Below, in pieces: positions 22,591 through 31,607 of a DNA stretch of 34,585 nucleotides. Within the stretch, counting starts at the first letter, position 1; each line of letters starts with the position of its first letter. This DNA is from an uncultured Elusimicrobium sp. (GTDB lineage Bacteria > Elusimicrobiota > Elusimicrobia > Elusimicrobiales > Elusimicrobiaceae): contig CAMZDW010000010.1 in NCBI GenBank assembly GCA_947305555.1, positions 1 to 34,585 on the forward strand. Direction: 5' to 3'. The translations under genes and the position numbers were made by a program. Under the pieces are notes generated by a model, which saw nothing but the letters and a program-made list of their open reading frames with translations, made no database searches and was not told the origin of the DNA.

Positions 22591-22648
22591 TGAAAACGTT
22601 GCGTTGTGTTAAAATGAGGGCTTTTGTATAGTGGCGGAGAAGGAAATT

Positions 22649-22663
22649 TGCTATAATTTGTAC
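22649..22663 (+). promoter_or_regulatory. Extended -10 promoter giving a leaderless spoIID-like mRNA
   Basis: TGCTATAAT (22649-22657) ends 6 nt before ATG 22664, so transcription is predicted to begin at or next to the A of the start codon. The only purine-rich ribosome-like sequence (GAGAAGGA) lies upstream of the -10, outside such a transcript. Confidence 0.6.
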
Positions 22664-24817
22664 ATGGGAAGATATCGTTTATTATTTGCCTTATTGTTTG
22701 TGTTTTTTACACCGTTGGTGTTGGCGGAAACGGTGGTTGACACCGAGGAAACCCCTGTGGAAGTAACTCGCACGGTCACAAAGTCATCTTTAGCGGCTAC
22801 GCGTGTTGATAGCAAACTCAACGAAGCGGTGCTTCATAAATCGGTGGTGGATTACTCGCTCCCGGAGGACCTACTTCCGGTCATGAAGAAGTGCGTGCAG
22901 GGAGAAGAGGACGATTGCTATTTTTCCCTTAAAACTTTTGAAAATTCATCCGATCCGGCTACTGCATCGGCGGCAAATTTAGAATTAGCTTATCTTTCCC
23001 TGCAACGGGGACTAATGAAACAGGCTTTGGCGTATGTGGGGCATGCGGCCGAGTTAAGTCCGGATGACCCTTTTATCCAACTTTCGAAGGGATGGTTTTT
23101 GTTGTCGGCCGGAAAGTATAAAAAAGCACGAGAGGCTTTTGCGGATTTAATGTATTTAACAGCCGATTTTGAATATGTTTCATCAGCTAAATTAGGAACG
23201 GCCCTATCCTTTTACTATACTGGCGATAAAGAAAAGGCAATTCAGGAATTGCAGTACTTATACACTTCCAATCCTTATGCGATTTCGTTTGTATCCTACA
23301 TGCTGGGCAAAATAGCTGCACAGACCAAAGATGGGAAAAAAATAGCGCCCGTATTTTTACAACAATCACTTTCACATGATGAAAAAAATTATGCAGCTGC
23401 CAAATTGTATGCAGAGATTTCCGCCAAAGAGAAAGAAGACTTACGTTCCTGGCAATATTACGCTACGCTTTATGCGCTCGATCCCGACAATAAGAAATTA
23501 GCTGCAAAGATGGAGCGTTATGCAACAAAATTTGAAGACAAACGGATTGATTACTTGTTTTATTTTAAGCTGGACCAACCTATTGTGCAAGAGTTAGTAC
23601 ATACTCCTTCCGAAAGAATTAAAATGGCACTTTATGCGAACCGAGAGCAAGTGCCTCAATCCTTGATCTCTGCATCGGTGATGGGAGCCGGGCGTTTCGT
23701 GGTTACCGATGAAAAATTAGGGGAAGTGTTGCGTGTAGCGTCTTACACGGAAAAGAAGATTGTGTTTAATGCCGAAACCGGAGGGGTGGATTTGCAAGAT
23801 GCTAAAGGGCGTGTGGAATTTTCCGCGAAGCGTCCATTTACTATCTCCTCAGAGAAGACTGAACGTACGTTGTTAGTTTCTAAACCGTTAGCAACCAATA
23901 TTTTTGCGGCCGATTTAAGTGACAAAGAATTGGCCGGGGCATTGATAGTAATCCCGAATAAAGAGGGATTTACTTTGGTTAACATGGTTTCGGTGGAAGA
24001 TTTAATTCCTTCGTTGTTGGCGGTTCAAGCACCTAACGTAAAAGAAACGGAAGCATTAAAGGCGTTAGCGATTGTACTTCGTTCTTCTCTGCAAGCAGCC
24101 AGAACCGAACACGCGGACCAACCGTACCAAATTACGGATAATGATCCGGAGTTTAAATTTAAAGGCATTAATTTGATTTCTACAGCTTTGCTAGATGCGT
24201 CTAAAAGTTCTACTGATTTTCGTTTGACACAAGCCCAGGCAGGTTTTTATTCTGATTGTGGAGTTGTGACGGCGAACGGACTTGCTAATAGCGCATCCTT
24301 GCCGGGATATGTATTCTCCCCGGTTAATGTGAGCAAATATATCCTATCTAATCCCCCGGCAGATTTGTATTCCCGGCCGCAGGATCCCACCCAGTGGGCC
24401 AGTATCAAGTGGATATATGAATACGATGCAAAAGAAATTGAACAACGGCTGTCCTACAAAAAGAATATTGGTAAATTACGCGCCATTGTGCCGGTGAAAT
24501 TTTCACCGCAGGGACGTATTTTATCAATGCGTTTTGAAGGCAGCAAAGGCAGTTACCAATCCCAGTCTGCACAGGAAACAGTTTTTATCCTAAGCGCAGG
24601 CACTATGCGTTCTAACCTGTTTGATGTAGTGCCATTTTATAAGGGGAAAAACATCAAAACCATCTTAGTACGCGGCTACGATACGGGAGAAGGAAACGGC
24701 CTTTGTTTGCATGGAGCGGACGGCCTGGCAAAACAAGGTGCGGATTATATGGCCATTATTAAATATTATTTCCCCGAAGCGCGCATCCTAAATACCCAAA
24801 CAGGAACAGTAAATTAA
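22664..24817 (+). CDS. TPR-containing SpoIID/LytB-like protein, catalytic Glu replaced by Gln
   Basis: 717 aa. ATG 22664 was chosen because it gives the signal peptide MGRYRLLFALLFVFFTPLVLA; a GTG at 22631 adds sequence that overlaps the promoter. Residues about 60-270 are TPR-like helical repeats (SPDDPFIQLSKGWFLLSAGK). Residues about 430-717 resemble SpoIID: EDLIPSLLAVQAPNVKE, TEALKALAIVLRSSLQAAR, FYSDCGVVT, and a C-terminal GLCLHGADGLAKQGADYMAIIKYYFP. SpoIID is a lytic transglycosylase that cuts glycan strands lacking stem peptides. Its essential acid (E88 of B. subtilis, in ASEMP) aligns with Gln455 here, so the protein may bind rather than cut. It is first in an operon with the GT4 and acyl-CoA dehydrogenase genes. 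Confidence 0.82.
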   Translation: MGRYRLLFALLFVFFTPLVLAETVVDTEETPVEVTRTVTKSSLAATRVDSKLNEAVLHKSVVDYSLPEDLLPVMKKCVQGEEDDCYFSLKTFENSSDPATASAANLELAYLSLQRGLMKQALAYVGHAAELSPDDPFIQLSKGWFLLSAGKYKKAREAFADLMYLTADFEYVSSAKLGTALSFYYTGDKEKAIQELQYLYTSNPYAISFVSYMLGKIAAQTKDGKKIAPVFLQQSLSHDEKNYAAAKLYAEISAKEKEDLRSWQYYATLYALDPDNKKLAAKMERYATKFEDKRIDYLFYFKLDQPIVQELVHTPSERIKMALYANREQVPQSLISASVMGAGRFVVTDEKLGEVLRVASYTEKKIVFNAETGGVDLQDAKGRVEFSAKRPFTISSEKTERTLLVSKPLATNIFAADLSDKELAGALIVIPNKEGFTLVNMVSVEDLIPSLLAVQAPNVKETEALKALAIVLRSSLQAARTEHADQPYQITDNDPEFKFKGINLISTALLDASKSSTDFRLTQAQAGFYSDCGVVTANGLANSASLPGYVFSPVNVSKYILSNPPADLYSRPQDPTQWASIKWIYEYDAKEIEQRLSYKKNIGKLRAIVPVKFSPQGRILSMRFEGSKGSYQSQSAQETVFILSAGTMRSNLFDVVPFYKGKNIKTILVRGYDTGEGNGLCLHGADGLAKQGADYMAIIKYYFPEARILNTQTGTVN

Positions 24818-26065
24818 ATGGAAAAAACAAAGATACTTTATTTCATCACGCGGATGGATCAAGGTGGTGCACAAAACAGTGTGCTAACTACCATGAAAAC
24901 GATTAACAAACAGCAGTTTGAAGTTTTTTTAGCTACCGGACGTGGAGGACGTTTGGATGGAAAAATCAAACAGGACTCTTCCCACTTGTTCTTTATTTCA
25001 GCACTCCGCCATCCCGTGCATCCCAAATACGTACTGCACGATTTTTGGGCTATTTTACAAATGGGCCGCGTGCTACGCCGTGTCAAACCGGATATCGTAC
25101 ATACTAACGCCCCAAAGGCGGGGATTTTAGGCCGTATTGCCGCACGGATTTTTTGGCGAAGAGCCAAAGTAGTACATACGTTTCACGGACTTGGGTTTGC
25201 TAAAGAGCATGGCGAAAAGCAGTTTAAATTTTTCGTATCTGTGGAAAAATTCTGTGCCAAATTTACGGACGTACTTGTGTTTGTATCTCGTAAAAACGCA
25301 ATGGAAGCAAAACAACTGGGCATTGGAAAGAGTGTTCGTACCGAACTTATTCGTGCCGGGATTAGTTTTACGCCGATTTTACCGCTAAAATTTGATCCTG
25401 TTGCCAAAAAAGCTTCGCTTAAAATTCCGGCTAATGCCAAAGTTGTGCTGGCACTGGCGAATTTTAAACCGCTTAAAAACCCTATTCATTTTGTATTGGC
25501 CGCTTACAAAGTGCTTAGCCAAATGAAAAATGTTTACTTCATTTTTACGGGAGAAGGTCCGCTGAAACAAACAGCGGAAAATTTAGCCAAAAATTTGAGC
25601 ATTGAAAAGCAAGTCCTATTTCCCGGGTGGCGGAATGATGCTTTGGAATTATTAGCGATTAGTGATGTGTTTGCCAGTGTTTCGCTTCGGGAAGGGTTAC
25701 CCATGTCGCTGTTGGAAGCGATGGCCATGCGTGTGCCGGCTGTGTGCTACAATGTGGACGGTATCAGCGAAGTAGTTACGGATAACAAAACGGGCTTTTT
25801 AGTGCCGCCCAATGACATTAATTTATTTGCGGAAAAAGTGAAAGTGCTTTTGCGTCACACGTCTCTTCGGGAACGTTTTGAAGCGGCCATTGATCACCGG
25901 GATTTTGCAGAATTTACGGCGACCACCATGGTTAAAAAACAAGAGCGGCTGTATCGCAGTTTAGTGCCTCCTACCAAAAAAAATGGTGGGAAAAGACATT
26001 TCTTCCGTCGGCGTCGCTATACGAAAAAATTCAACCAGGGAGTGAAAAATGGACTACGCAGTTAA
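24818..26065 (+). CDS. GT4-family (GT-B) glycosyltransferase
   Basis: 415 aa. It transfers a sugar from an activated donor to an unknown acceptor, probably a cell-surface glycan; the enzyme is cytoplasmic or membrane-attached. N-terminal acceptor half begins KILYFITRMDQGGAQNSV, the GGA loop usual for GT4. The C-terminal donor half has NFKPLKNPIHFV, FTGEGPLK, LFPGWR, and the nucleotide-sugar motif SLREGLPMSLLEAMAM (E-x7-E) followed by DGISEVV and GFLVPP. A basic tail ends the protein (about 385-415, KKNGGKRHFFRRRRYTKK). It starts directly after the stop of the SpoIID-like gene and its end overlaps the next gene by 17 nt, so the three are translationally linked. Confidence 0.92.
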   Translation: MEKTKILYFITRMDQGGAQNSVLTTMKTINKQQFEVFLATGRGGRLDGKIKQDSSHLFFISALRHPVHPKYVLHDFWAILQMGRVLRRVKPDIVHTNAPKAGILGRIAARIFWRRAKVVHTFHGLGFAKEHGEKQFKFFVSVEKFCAKFTDVLVFVSRKNAMEAKQLGIGKSVRTELIRAGISFTPILPLKFDPVAKKASLKIPANAKVVLALANFKPLKNPIHFVLAAYKVLSQMKNVYFIFTGEGPLKQTAENLAKNLSIEKQVLFPGWRNDALELLAISDVFASVSLREGLPMSLLEAMAMRVPAVCYNVDGISEVVTDNKTGFLVPPNDINLFAEKVKVLLRHTSLRERFEAAIDHRDFAEFTATTMVKKQERLYRSLVPPTKKNGGKRHFFRRRRYTKKFNQGVKNGLRS

Positions 26066-27746
26066 CGAGTTAGAACAAGAAGTATTAAATGCTTCGCGCG
26101 AACTGGTGCAGAAAAAAATTAAACCTTTGCGTGCCGAGATGGACGAAAAGGAACAGTTTTCACAAGAAATGTTAGAAGCATATCGTGCGGCGAATATGTT
26201 TGGTTTGTGGTTACCAAAAGAGTATGGCGGATTAGGGGGAGGAATTACCTGCCTGGCGATGTCGTTTGAGGAACTTTCGCGCGGATGTGCCGGCTTGGCT
26301 TTAACTCCGGGAACGTCTGCTTTAGGGGCCATTCCCATGTTTTTGGCCGCTACCAAAGAACAACGTGACCGTTGGTGCCCGGATCTTGCCAGCGGCAAAA
26401 AATTGTGGGCGTTTGCGCTAACAGAGCCGGAAGCTGGGAGCGATGCAACTGCCCTAAAAACCACTGCCATTAAAGATGGCGATTTTTATGTGGTCAACGG
26501 TACCAAACACTTTATTTCTACCGGCAAAGAAGCTGATTTTTATACCGTAGTTGTCAATACTAATCCCAGCCGCGGTGCACGTGGAATTTCACTTTTAGTG
26601 CTTGAAAAAGGCATGCCCGGGTTTACGTTTGGCAAAAAAGAATCAAAGATGGGAATCCGTTCCAACCCGACGTATGAACTTATTTTTGAAAATGTGCGCG
26701 TGCCAAAAGAAAATTTACTGGGCAGCGAAGGCCGCGGTCTTTTATATGTACAGGAAACGCTAGACTATTCTCGCCCAGGTGTGGCGGCGCAGGCAGTAGG
26801 CATTGCGCAAGGCGCGTTGGACGTTACAATTCCTTATTTGAAAACACGCAAACAATTTGGCCAACCAATTATTACTTTCCAAGCCTTGGGGCATAAAGTC
26901 GCCGAATTGGCGGCTAAAACGGAAGCCGGCCGGGCCATGGTGTATAATTTGACACACCGTATGGATCAGGAATGGTTCCCGGCGGTAAAAAATGCGATGG
27001 CTAACGGAACAACAGTGCATGATGAACTTAAAAAGTTAAAGGGAGCTCGTTGGACAAAATATAGCGCAGAAGCCAAGTTGTTCTGTTCTAATGTCGCGAT
27101 GGAAGTTGCCGATGAATGTGTAACGCTGTGTGGCGGAATTGCTTATATGCGCGATTTCCCGTTAGAGAAGTATATGCGTGATGCCAAAGTTACACAAATT
27201 TACGAAGGAACTGTGCATATCCAAAAGAACGAAATTTTGAACGCACTTATTAAAGAATATGCGGCCAGCGGTACTGCGGAAGTAAATCCTCCCGCGCATA
27301 AAGCAGGTACGCTCAATGAACTGTTGCGTGATTATCACAAAAAACATACTTCGTCAGTACAGCCAGAAGAAGGCAAAGTGGATATTTCTCAAGCGGAAGT
27401 AGTCGTGGCCGGCGGCCGCGGCGTAGGCAGCAAGGAAGGATTTTTACTCCTTCAAAAATTAGCTGACAAATTAGGCGGCGTGGTGGGTGCTACCCGCCCG
27501 GCAGCGGATAACGGATGGATTGATTCCCGTTATCAAATTGGTGTGACGGGGCGTACGGTTAAACCAAAGCTATATATTGCCTGTGGAATTTCGGGTCAAA
27601 TGCATCATATGTCCGGTGTAAACGGAGCCGACGTGATTGTAGCAATTAACAAGGACCCCAATGCGCCGATTATGAAAATGGCACACTATGCTGTGGAGGG
27701 GGATTTGCATGAAGTGATTCCTTCCCTCTTAGAAGCATTGAAATAA
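26049..27746 (+). CDS. Acyl-CoA dehydrogenase fused to the FAD-binding domain of ETF-alpha
   Basis: 565 aa. Residues 1-395 are a full acyl-CoA dehydrogenase: LPKEYGGLGGG, ALTEPEAGSDA, GTKHFISTG, RKQFGQPI and YEGTVHIQ with catalytic base Glu386. It would reduce or oxidise short-chain acyl-CoA through FAD. After a linker (about 396-445), residues about 446-565 match the C-terminal FAD domain of electron-transfer flavoprotein alpha (VVVAGGRGVGSKEGF, VVGATRPAADNGW, QIGVTGRTVKP, LYIACGISGQMHH, VIVAINKDPNAPI). The N-terminal ETF-alpha domain and ETF-beta are absent from this protein and window. The fusion places an electron-accepting FAD next to the dehydrogenase. The start is preceded by GGGAG and overlaps the glycosyltransferase gene. 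Confidence 0.93.
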   Translation: MDYAVNELEQEVLNASRELVQKKIKPLRAEMDEKEQFSQEMLEAYRAANMFGLWLPKEYGGLGGGITCLAMSFEELSRGCAGLALTPGTSALGAIPMFLAATKEQRDRWCPDLASGKKLWAFALTEPEAGSDATALKTTAIKDGDFYVVNGTKHFISTGKEADFYTVVVNTNPSRGARGISLLVLEKGMPGFTFGKKESKMGIRSNPTYELIFENVRVPKENLLGSEGRGLLYVQETLDYSRPGVAAQAVGIAQGALDVTIPYLKTRKQFGQPIITFQALGHKVAELAAKTEAGRAMVYNLTHRMDQEWFPAVKNAMANGTTVHDELKKLKGARWTKYSAEAKLFCSNVAMEVADECVTLCGGIAYMRDFPLEKYMRDAKVTQIYEGTVHIQKNEILNALIKEYAASGTAEVNPPAHKAGTLNELLRDYHKKHTSSVQPEEGKVDISQAEVVVAGGRGVGSKEGFLLLQKLADKLGGVVGATRPAADNGWIDSRYQIGVTGRTVKPKLYIACGISGQMHHMSGVNGADVIVAINKDPNAPIMKMAHYAVEGDLHEVIPSLLEALK

Positions 27747-30802: not shown

Positions 30803-30851
30803 TTGGTTTGGTCCCTCAAATTTATTATAATAAAATTAATTGTTTCTGCAA
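30803..30851. promoter_or_regulatory. Overlapping divergent promoters for the AlbA_2 and MgtE-like genes
   Basis: Plus strand: TTGGTT (30803-30808), 17 nt, TATAAT (30826-30831). Minus strand: TTGCAG (30851-30846), 16 nt, TATAAT (30829-30824). The palindrome TTATTATAATAA supplies both -10 boxes, so polymerase cannot occupy both at once. Confidence 0.65.
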
Positions 30852-30863
30852 GGTGTAATTGAT

Positions 30864-31607
30864 ATGAATGAACCTATTCGCGCATTGGCAAACGAAATAA
30901 CGGAAAAGTTTATCTTGGCCGCCCCGGACCGAGCCGCACAGGCATTGGAAACGTTGGCCACCCATGAGATTTTACTGTTGCTTTCTCCGTTAAAGGCGCA
31001 AACGTTGGTTTCGTGTTTTAACGCTATGCAGCCGGCAAAAGCTGCAGCGGTATTGCGCCGTTTGCCACTCAAACAAGCGACTCATATCCTCATGCATTTG
31101 GAAATTACGCAAGCCTCCCGGCTGATGCAAGAATTTTCAGGGCCGTTTCGGGAGCGAATTTCAGCGGCGCTTCCCACTTCTTTCTTGCAGATTTTGCAAG
31201 AATCTTCTTCCTATGCCCCCGGTAGTGCCGGGTGTTTGATGTCAACCGATTTTGTAGCAGTCAAAACGGAGGCTAAAGTGGCGCAGTTGGTGGACCGTTT
31301 AAAAACATTGCCTCGTGCTAAATTACCGGCTGCATGCTTTGTCACAAGCAAAGACGGCGTGTTGAAAGGATTTATCCGGACCGGGGAACTGGCATTTTAC
31401 AGCGTTGATTCTGTATGCGGTTCCGTGATGACTCCTTGCGAGGGGATTTCTCCACAACTAGCAGAGGAAGCACTGGAAGAACGGTTGAATTCGTCAGAAA
31501 CAGATTTGCTGCCTGTAGTAAATGAAAAGCAGGTGTTGGTAGGCGTTTTAAATCGCTGGATGGTGCAAACCCCTAAGAAACCCTTTTGGAAAAAATGGGC
31601 CTCTTAA
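30864..31607 (+). CDS. Stand-alone MgtE N-domain plus CBS-pair protein (no membrane domain)
   Basis: 247 aa soluble protein. Residues about 1-115 resemble the helical MgtE N domain (superhelix of short helices, ILLLLSPLKAQTLVSCFNAM, AAAVLRRLPLKQATHILMHL). Residues about 120-235 are a pair of CBS motifs (SAGCLMSTDFVAVKTEA, GVLKGFIRTGELAF; GSVMTPCEGIS, LLPVVNEKQVLVGVLNRW). In MgtE these cytosolic domains sense Mg2+ and gate the channel, but the five-helix pore is missing here and the protein ends with KKPFWKKWAS. It may sense Mg2+ or nucleotides for another partner. AAGGTG lies just upstream of ATG 30864; an in-frame ATG at 30840 is inside the predicted start of transcription. Confidence 0.8.
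   Translation: MNEPIRALANEITEKFILAAPDRAAQALETLATHEILLLLSPLKAQTLVSCFNAMQPAKAAAVLRRLPLKQATHILMHLEITQASRLMQEFSGPFRERISAALPTSFLQILQESSSYAPGSAGCLMSTDFVAVKTEAKVAQLVDRLKTLPRAKLPAACFVTSKDGVLKGFIRTGELAFYSVDSVCGSVMTPCEGISPQLAEEALEERLNSSETDLLPVVNEKQVLVGVLNRWMVQTPKKPFWKKWAS

What the first reader, a model, noticed from the sequence alone, without database searches (positions are those of the whole stretch)
26049..27746. Acyl-CoA dehydrogenase fused to the ETF-alpha FAD domain
A complete acyl-CoA dehydrogenase (catalytic Glu386 in YEGT) continues through a short linker into a complete ETF-alpha C-terminal FAD-binding domain, without ETF-alpha domain I and without ETF-beta in the window. Normally the dehydrogenase passes electrons to a separate soluble ETF. 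In this single chain a second FAD sits beside the active site, which could allow built-in electron shuttling, direct bifurcation with a separate partner, or a one-protein acyl-CoA reductase in an anaerobe.
Basis: partly seen in the sequence, partly recalled or inferred. Interest (0 to 1): 0.75.

Follow-up and report, generated by a model that had tools for sequence, protein, structure and literature searches.

The report
Dehydrogenase fused to its electron shuttle
In some gut and rumen Elusimicrobia an acyl-CoA dehydrogenase gene has been joined, by loss of about 1.3 kb of operon, to the flavin-carrying shuttle domain of its electron-transfer partner, while the rest of that partner was lost from the genome; the joined protein is real, conserved and under selection, but what feeds it electrons is not known.

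Summary
The fusion is real. ORF 26049-27746 (565 aa) holds a complete acyl-CoA dehydrogenase (ACAD, Glu386) and a complete ETF-alpha domain II (the FAD domain), joined by a 39-aa linker. It is not an assembly error: full-length fusions occur in 14 independently assembled genomes of one gut Elusimicrobiaceae genus and in none of the other 99 genera sampled in the phylum.

About 40 congeners keep ACAD-etfB-etfA as three genes at the same locus. The fused genomes lost etfB and EtfA domain I (about 1.34 kb). Ten of ten fused genomes retain only one other ETF (EtfB2 + ferredoxin-type EtfA2); 14 of 14 unfused genomes have both. The tethered domain is under purifying selection (dN/dS about 0.11) and keeps most alpha-FAD contacts, but two flavin-site changes are fixed and the semiquinone-stabilising Arg is Gln in 8 of 13. 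ETF-II trees give one origin; ACAD and flanking genes scatter the fused genomes, suggesting lateral spread.

Best reading: a tethered one-domain shuttle relaying electrons between a separate donor (perhaps ETF2) and the ACAD FAD. It lacks the NADH/beta-FAD base, so it cannot bifurcate alone. Crotonase, thiolase and HGD-D were not detected; a butyrate role is unlikely.

The parts
26049..27746 (+). fused ACAD::EtfA-domain-II gene, 565 aa
   Evidence: single ORF; Pfam; orthologous fusion in 14 congener genomes
26049..27260 (+). acyl-CoA dehydrogenase part, residues 1-404; catalytic Glu386 in YEGT; docking residues F155, E198, D369
   Evidence: Pfam, closest solved chain 5ol2_C C. difficile Bcd, residue mapping and conservation, Foldseek TM-score 0.94-0.95 to ACAD chains
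27261..27380 (+). linker, about residues 405-444; two low-confidence stretches (409-419, 437-442) around a predicted helix 422-435 with the conserved TL.E[LV]L..Y motif; linker length 34-39 aa across the fused proteins
   Evidence: AlphaFold2 model; alignment
27381..27743 (+). ETF-alpha domain II (FAD domain), residues 445-565; R483, T500, H520 match the human alpha-FAD contacts R249, T266, H286; T482 and H519 are fixed differences from the unfused proteins
   Evidence: PF00766 full length, closest solved chains CarE 6fah_A, 7koe_B, 5ol2_A, mapping, group-specific residues
24818..26065 (+). upstream family-4 glycosyltransferase gene, overlapping the fusion start by 17 bp; conserved neighbour in fused and unfused genomes
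   Evidence: Pfam, synteny
22631..24817 (+). SpoIID-domain protein, 728 aa, conserved upstream neighbour in both states
   Evidence: Pfam, synteny

Best explanation
The protein is an acyl-CoA dehydrogenase carrying its own tethered ETF shuttle domain. It arose when about 1.34 kb of an ACAD-etfB-etfA operon was lost in frame, removing etfB and EtfA domain I and joining the dehydrogenase to EtfA domain II through the old interdomain segment. The covalent linker now does what EtfB's fixed contact with the dehydrogenase did before: it keeps the flavin domain close to the dehydrogenase. The domain II FAD passes electrons to or from the dehydrogenase FAD when docked, and swings out to meet a separate partner. 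The likeliest partner is the one complete ETF left in these genomes (EtfB2 with ferredoxin-type EtfA2). Shown: anatomy, locus, loss of the base, conservation, purifying selection, altered flavin site. Inferred: FAD binding, docking geometry, direction of electron flow, partner.
For: Complete ACAD and complete domain II in one frame. Same locus holds ACAD-EtfB-EtfA in unfused congeners; 1444-1485 bp there against 34-39 codons in fused genes. PF01012 count: 2 in 10/10 fused genomes, at least 4 in 14/14 unfused. dN/dS of domain II: 0.11 fused, 0.067 unfused. In human ETF the FAD ring is contacted by R249, T266 and H286 (PMC5827430): the H286 match is kept in all 13 fused, T266 match in 12 (Ser in one), R249 match in 5. 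On the dehydrogenase side E198, D345 and F155 of C. difficile Bcd, which contact domain II or bridge the two FADs (PMC5691135), are E198, D369, F155 here, invariant in all 13 fused. In that complex R243 of EtfA, the same Arg as human R249, makes the docking salt bridges; it is Gln in 8 of 13 fused, compatible with a tether making them less necessary. AlphaFold2: two folded domains with flexible linker.
Against: No protein data; FAD binding by domain II alone is not shown, and R->Q, Q->H and S->T changes could also mean weakened flavin binding. The placement of the two domains in the model is not known to be reliable (pTM 0.71). No substitution in EtfB2, EtfA2 or ACAD2 cleanly separates fused from unfused genomes, and that comparison is confounded by relatedness, so ETF2 as partner is only an inference from what is left. 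Domain II evolves somewhat faster after fusion.
Confidence: 0.6

Rival explanations
1. Domain II is a stub without electron-transfer function: it binds no FAD, or binds it idly, and is kept for folding or stability, while the ACAD gets electrons directly from ETF2 or another carrier.
For: Loss of the conserved Arg in 8 of 13, fixed Q->H and S->T at the flavin site; dN/dS higher than in unfused EtfA.
Against: Purifying selection remains strong (dN/dS about 0.11); GISG, AINKD, Thr500-type and His520 positions kept; changes at the flavin site are specific and shared, not scattered decay; every one of 14 fusions keeps the full domain.
Confidence: 0.2
2. Domain exchange: the tethered domain II docks onto the EtfB2/EtfA2-domain-I base and takes electrons there, making the ACAD a second client of the one bifurcating-type ETF.
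For: ETF2 is the only base left in fused genomes; EtfB2 has the Gly at the A. fermentans G123 position (21 of 21) that PMC12630350 reports as invariant in bifurcating ETFs.
Against: EtfA2 has its own intact domain II that would compete; no diagnostic co-changes in ETF2, test confounded.
Confidence: 0.15
3. Self-sufficient two-flavin enzyme: a soluble one-electron carrier (ferredoxin, flavodoxin) reduces domain II directly, so that the protein is a one-chain enoyl-thioester reductase with no ETF at all.
For: Cognate ETF base lost; loss of the semiquinone-stabilising Arg in 8 of 13 would be expected to lower the first potential (Talfournier 2001, cited in PMC12630350).
Against: No direct evidence; no new carrier gene sits beside the fusions; the Arg is kept in this window's protein.
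Confidence: 0.1
4. Artefact: frameshift, mis-assembly or a binning error joined two genes.
For: All genomes are MAGs.
Against: 14 independent genomes, different studies and hosts, 79-85% identity full length, shared linker motif.
Confidence: 0.01

Closest known systems
EtfAB/Bcd complex of Clostridium difficile (PDB 5ol2; PMC5691135)
   Same: ACAD part is closest in sequence to its Bcd; domain II homologous to EtfA 200-331; docking residues E198, D345, F155 conserved on the ACAD
   Different: separate subunits there; here EtfB and EtfA domain I are absent and domain II is covalently attached; flavin-site substitutions
Caffeyl-CoA reductase-Etf CarCDE (PDB 6fah)
   Same: closest solved chain for domain II is CarE; ETF2 of these genomes has the same ferredoxin-domain EtfA layout
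   Different: three subunits with a complete bifurcating ETF
Acryloyl-CoA reductase AcrC/AcrA (NCBIfam NF042972, NF042970)
   Same: best NCBIfam matches for the two halves
   Different: both far below cut-off (373.8 of 640; 133.9 of 600); separate subunits
Unfused ACAD1-EtfB1-EtfA1 of congeners (e.g. L016, L044)
   Same: same locus, 85-91% identity over the ACAD; direct counterpart of the gene before fusion
   Different: three genes; EtfB1 has Ser at the G123 position (41 of 41)

Membership tests
Acyl-CoA dehydrogenase family | N-terminal, middle and C-terminal ACAD domains | tested here: met
   PF02771, PF02770, PF00441 above cut-off
Acyl-CoA dehydrogenase family | catalytic Glu in YEGT position | tested here: met
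   E386, invariant in 50 sequences
Acyl-CoA dehydrogenase family | acyl-thioester oxidation/reduction, one FAD per subunit | not testable with these tools
   needs protein
ETF alpha subunit | domain II FAD-binding domain | tested here: met
   PF00766 profile 1-81 of 81
ETF alpha subunit | domain I (PF01012) | tested here: not met
   no PF01012 in the protein
ETF alpha subunit | cognate EtfB encoded beside it | tested here: not met
   no etfB in the window; only EtfB2 elsewhere in the genome
Bifurcating EtfAB/Bcd system | EtfB with beta-FAD/NADH base as part of the system | tested here: not met
   base lost from the locus in fused genomes; ETF2 is encoded with ACAD2
Bifurcating EtfAB/Bcd system | dehydrogenase residues contacting domain II | tested here: met
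   E198, D369, F155 in all 13 fused
Acryloyl-CoA reductase AcrC | score over the curated cut-off | tested here: not met
   373.8 against 640 bits

The most novel reading that the evidence does not exclude
The fusion is a two-flavin enoyl-thioester reductase of lipid synthesis. The genus has FASII genes (PlsX, FabG, FabZ), but only FabG-type SDRs (Y-x3-K) and no FabI-type were seen, and no convincing FabK; an ACAD with an ETF shuttle could supply the missing enoyl reduction, in the fused species as one chain. Counter-observations: congeneric-family genomes G107, G110 and G120 lack any ACAD match and also showed only a FabG-type SDR, Elusimicrobium minutum-like G102 has only ACAD2, and the FabV search had no working control.
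Probability: 0.1. Interest if true: 0.85.

Novelty: new variant of a known kind. Interest (0 to 1): 0.62.

Why it matters
The swinging domain II is the moving part of ETF electron transfer. Here nature has cut it free of its base and tied it to the client enzyme, so that one can ask whether the shuttle works without EtfB, whether a tether replaces docking salt bridges, and how the alpha-FAD potential changes. Sister species with the three-gene form give matched controls. The apparent lateral spread of the fused form within one gut genus suggests that it is useful, not a degenerating accident.

Tried and rejected
NCBIfam assignment to a named ACAD: all below cut-off. Recombination breakpoints by sliding nucleotide identity along the ACAD: no sharp block, species too divergent. 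Co-change of EtfB2/EtfA2/ACAD2 with the fusion state: many lineage-linked differences, none diagnostic, confounded by relatedness. Butyrate/beta-oxidation role: no crotonase, no above-cut-off thiolase, no HGD-D in 12 genomes. FabV absence: cannot be claimed, control genomes did not ring. FabK/FabI in E. minutum-like G102 by regular expression on 1.6 of 1.64 Mb: nothing found, but a weak test. Literature: no paper found that describes an ACAD-EtfA fusion; two likely mentions checked and unrelated; the library is partial and a review of the ETF family was not held. Distribution outside the phylum was tested only through close peptide patterns, so distant independent fusions could be missed. Fold search on the model returned ACAD chains only among the 50 listed.

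Full report
Observation. The window has one ORF at 26049-27746 of 565 aa. Pfam places three ACAD domains at 8-400 and the complete ETF_alpha FAD domain (PF00766, 81 of 81 positions) at 445-525, with no PF01012. The closest solved chains are C. difficile Bcd (5ol2_C) for the front and CarE (6fah_A) for the back.

Not an artefact. The window lies in G000, a 1.36 Mb MAG. Searching 341 genomes of the phylum found full-length fusions in 14 genomes including this one, all in the same genus (about 65 genomes sampled), and none in the other 99 genera. Named records place the relatives in Elusimicrobiaceae from rumen, yak, sheep and horse samples.

Origin. In congeners the same locus reads SpoIID-like gene, GT4 glycosyltransferase, ACAD, etfB, etfA; in fused genomes the ACAD::domain II gene occupies the slot directly. 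The distance from the ACAD C-terminus to EtfA domain II is 1444-1485 bp in 39 unfused loci and 34-39 codons in 13 fused ones, so about 1.34 kb is missing. PF01012 matches number 2 in all 10 fused genomes tested, of 72-99% completeness, and at least 4 in all 14 unfused ones: the cognate base is gone from the genome. What remains is ACAD2 - EtfB2 - EtfA2, the last with two 4Fe-4S motifs.

One origin, probably spread. Domain II of the 13 fused proteins forms one clade in protein and DNA trees (SH-aLRT 98), and all share a linker motif TL.E[LV]L..Y. Yet the ACAD DNA (dlnL 204, p 1e-36) and the neighbouring GT4+SpoIID proteins (p 5e-7) reject the fused genomes as one clade, placing them beside unfused species. 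Pairing domain II with the apparent sister is rejected for L081/L066 (p 0.002 and 0.011) and L042/L062 (p 0.030 and 0.032), not for window/L107 (p 0.16 and 0.083). Transfer of the fused form is the simpler reading; repeated fusion followed by convergence is not excluded, since the domain is only about 120 aa.

Selection and flavin site. Median dN/dS is 0.043 (ACAD, fused), 0.111 (domain II, fused) and 0.067 (domain II, unfused); synonymous sites are near saturation, so these are rough. Published contacts of the human ETF flavin are R249, T266 and H286 (PMC5827430); these map to R483, T500 and H520. H520 is kept in 13 of 13, T500 in 12 (Ser in L042), R483 in 5, the other 8 having Gln together with Asp->Asn four residues on. 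S->T at 482 and Q->H at 519 are fixed in all 13. R483 matches C. difficile EtfA R243, which salt-bridges to Bcd E198 and D345 in the dehydrogenase-docked state and whose mutation cut activity (PMC5691135); both Bcd residues and the bridging F155 are conserved here. ACAD positions 127 and 152 near the flavin, and 199 beside E198, also shift between groups.

How it probably works. In ETF complexes EtfB holds the dehydrogenase by a fixed contact and domain II swings between base and client. With the base gone, the 34-39 residue linker can hold domain II near the ACAD. AlphaFold2 gives two folded domains (mean pLDDT 88.4) with disordered linker ends; pTM is 0.71 and domain placement should not be trusted. 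I infer that domain II relays electrons between the ACAD FAD and a separate partner. The protein cannot bifurcate NADH electrons alone. ETF2 is the only complete ETF left, its EtfB2 has the bifurcating-type Gly (21 of 21; criterion from PMC12630350), and it is the first candidate, but no co-change supports it. The lost EtfB1 had Ser at that position (41 of 41), so whether ETF1 ever bifurcated is open.

Substrate. No crotonase, no above-cut-off thiolase and no HGD-D in 12 genus genomes. FabZ and FabG-type SDRs are present; no FabI-type SDR and no convincing FabK were found. A lipid-synthetic role is a lead, with counter-observations given in the section on the most novel reading.

Verdict. Real, conserved, genus-restricted within the sampled phylum, and a new variant of the ACAD/ETF system. 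Function remains inferred.

Noticed in passing
L022:2180-5880 (G000 contig C7) and counterparts L256-L275: Second system ACAD2 (573 aa) - EtfB2 - EtfA2 with ferredoxin motifs, present in all 21 genomes compared; EtfB2 carries the bifurcating-type Gly.
   Followed up: partly
L016:6024-6818 and 40 other unfused loci: EtfB1 has Ser at the A. fermentans G123 position (CGKQTNDSDTGHIGP, 41 of 41), neither the Gly of bifurcating nor the bulky residue of canonical ETFs.
   Followed up: partly
L118, L126, L121 and genomes: FASII genes with no FabI-type SDR or convincing FabK in the genus: the enoyl-ACP reductase is not identified.
   Followed up: partly
L127, L130-L133, L174, L175: Very long ORFs (around 1000-3200 aa) with weak ketoreductase-type matches, PKS- or PUFA-synthase-like, in many of these genomes.
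   Followed up: no
L126:1219-3449, L121:240-2223: Ketoreductase beside a ketoacyl synthase, resembling an aryl-polyene-type cluster.
   Followed up: no
L032:5712-6766 (G018): Unfused ACAD split into two overlapping ORFs (236 and 132 aa), possibly a frameshift in the assembly.
   Followed up: no
G102 (1,643,562 bp, one contig): This congeneric-family genome has only ACAD2-EtfB2-EtfA2, no ACAD1 (1.6 Mb examined).
   Followed up: partly
window 30840-31607: 255-aa protein matching only the N-terminal half of MgtE.
   Followed up: no
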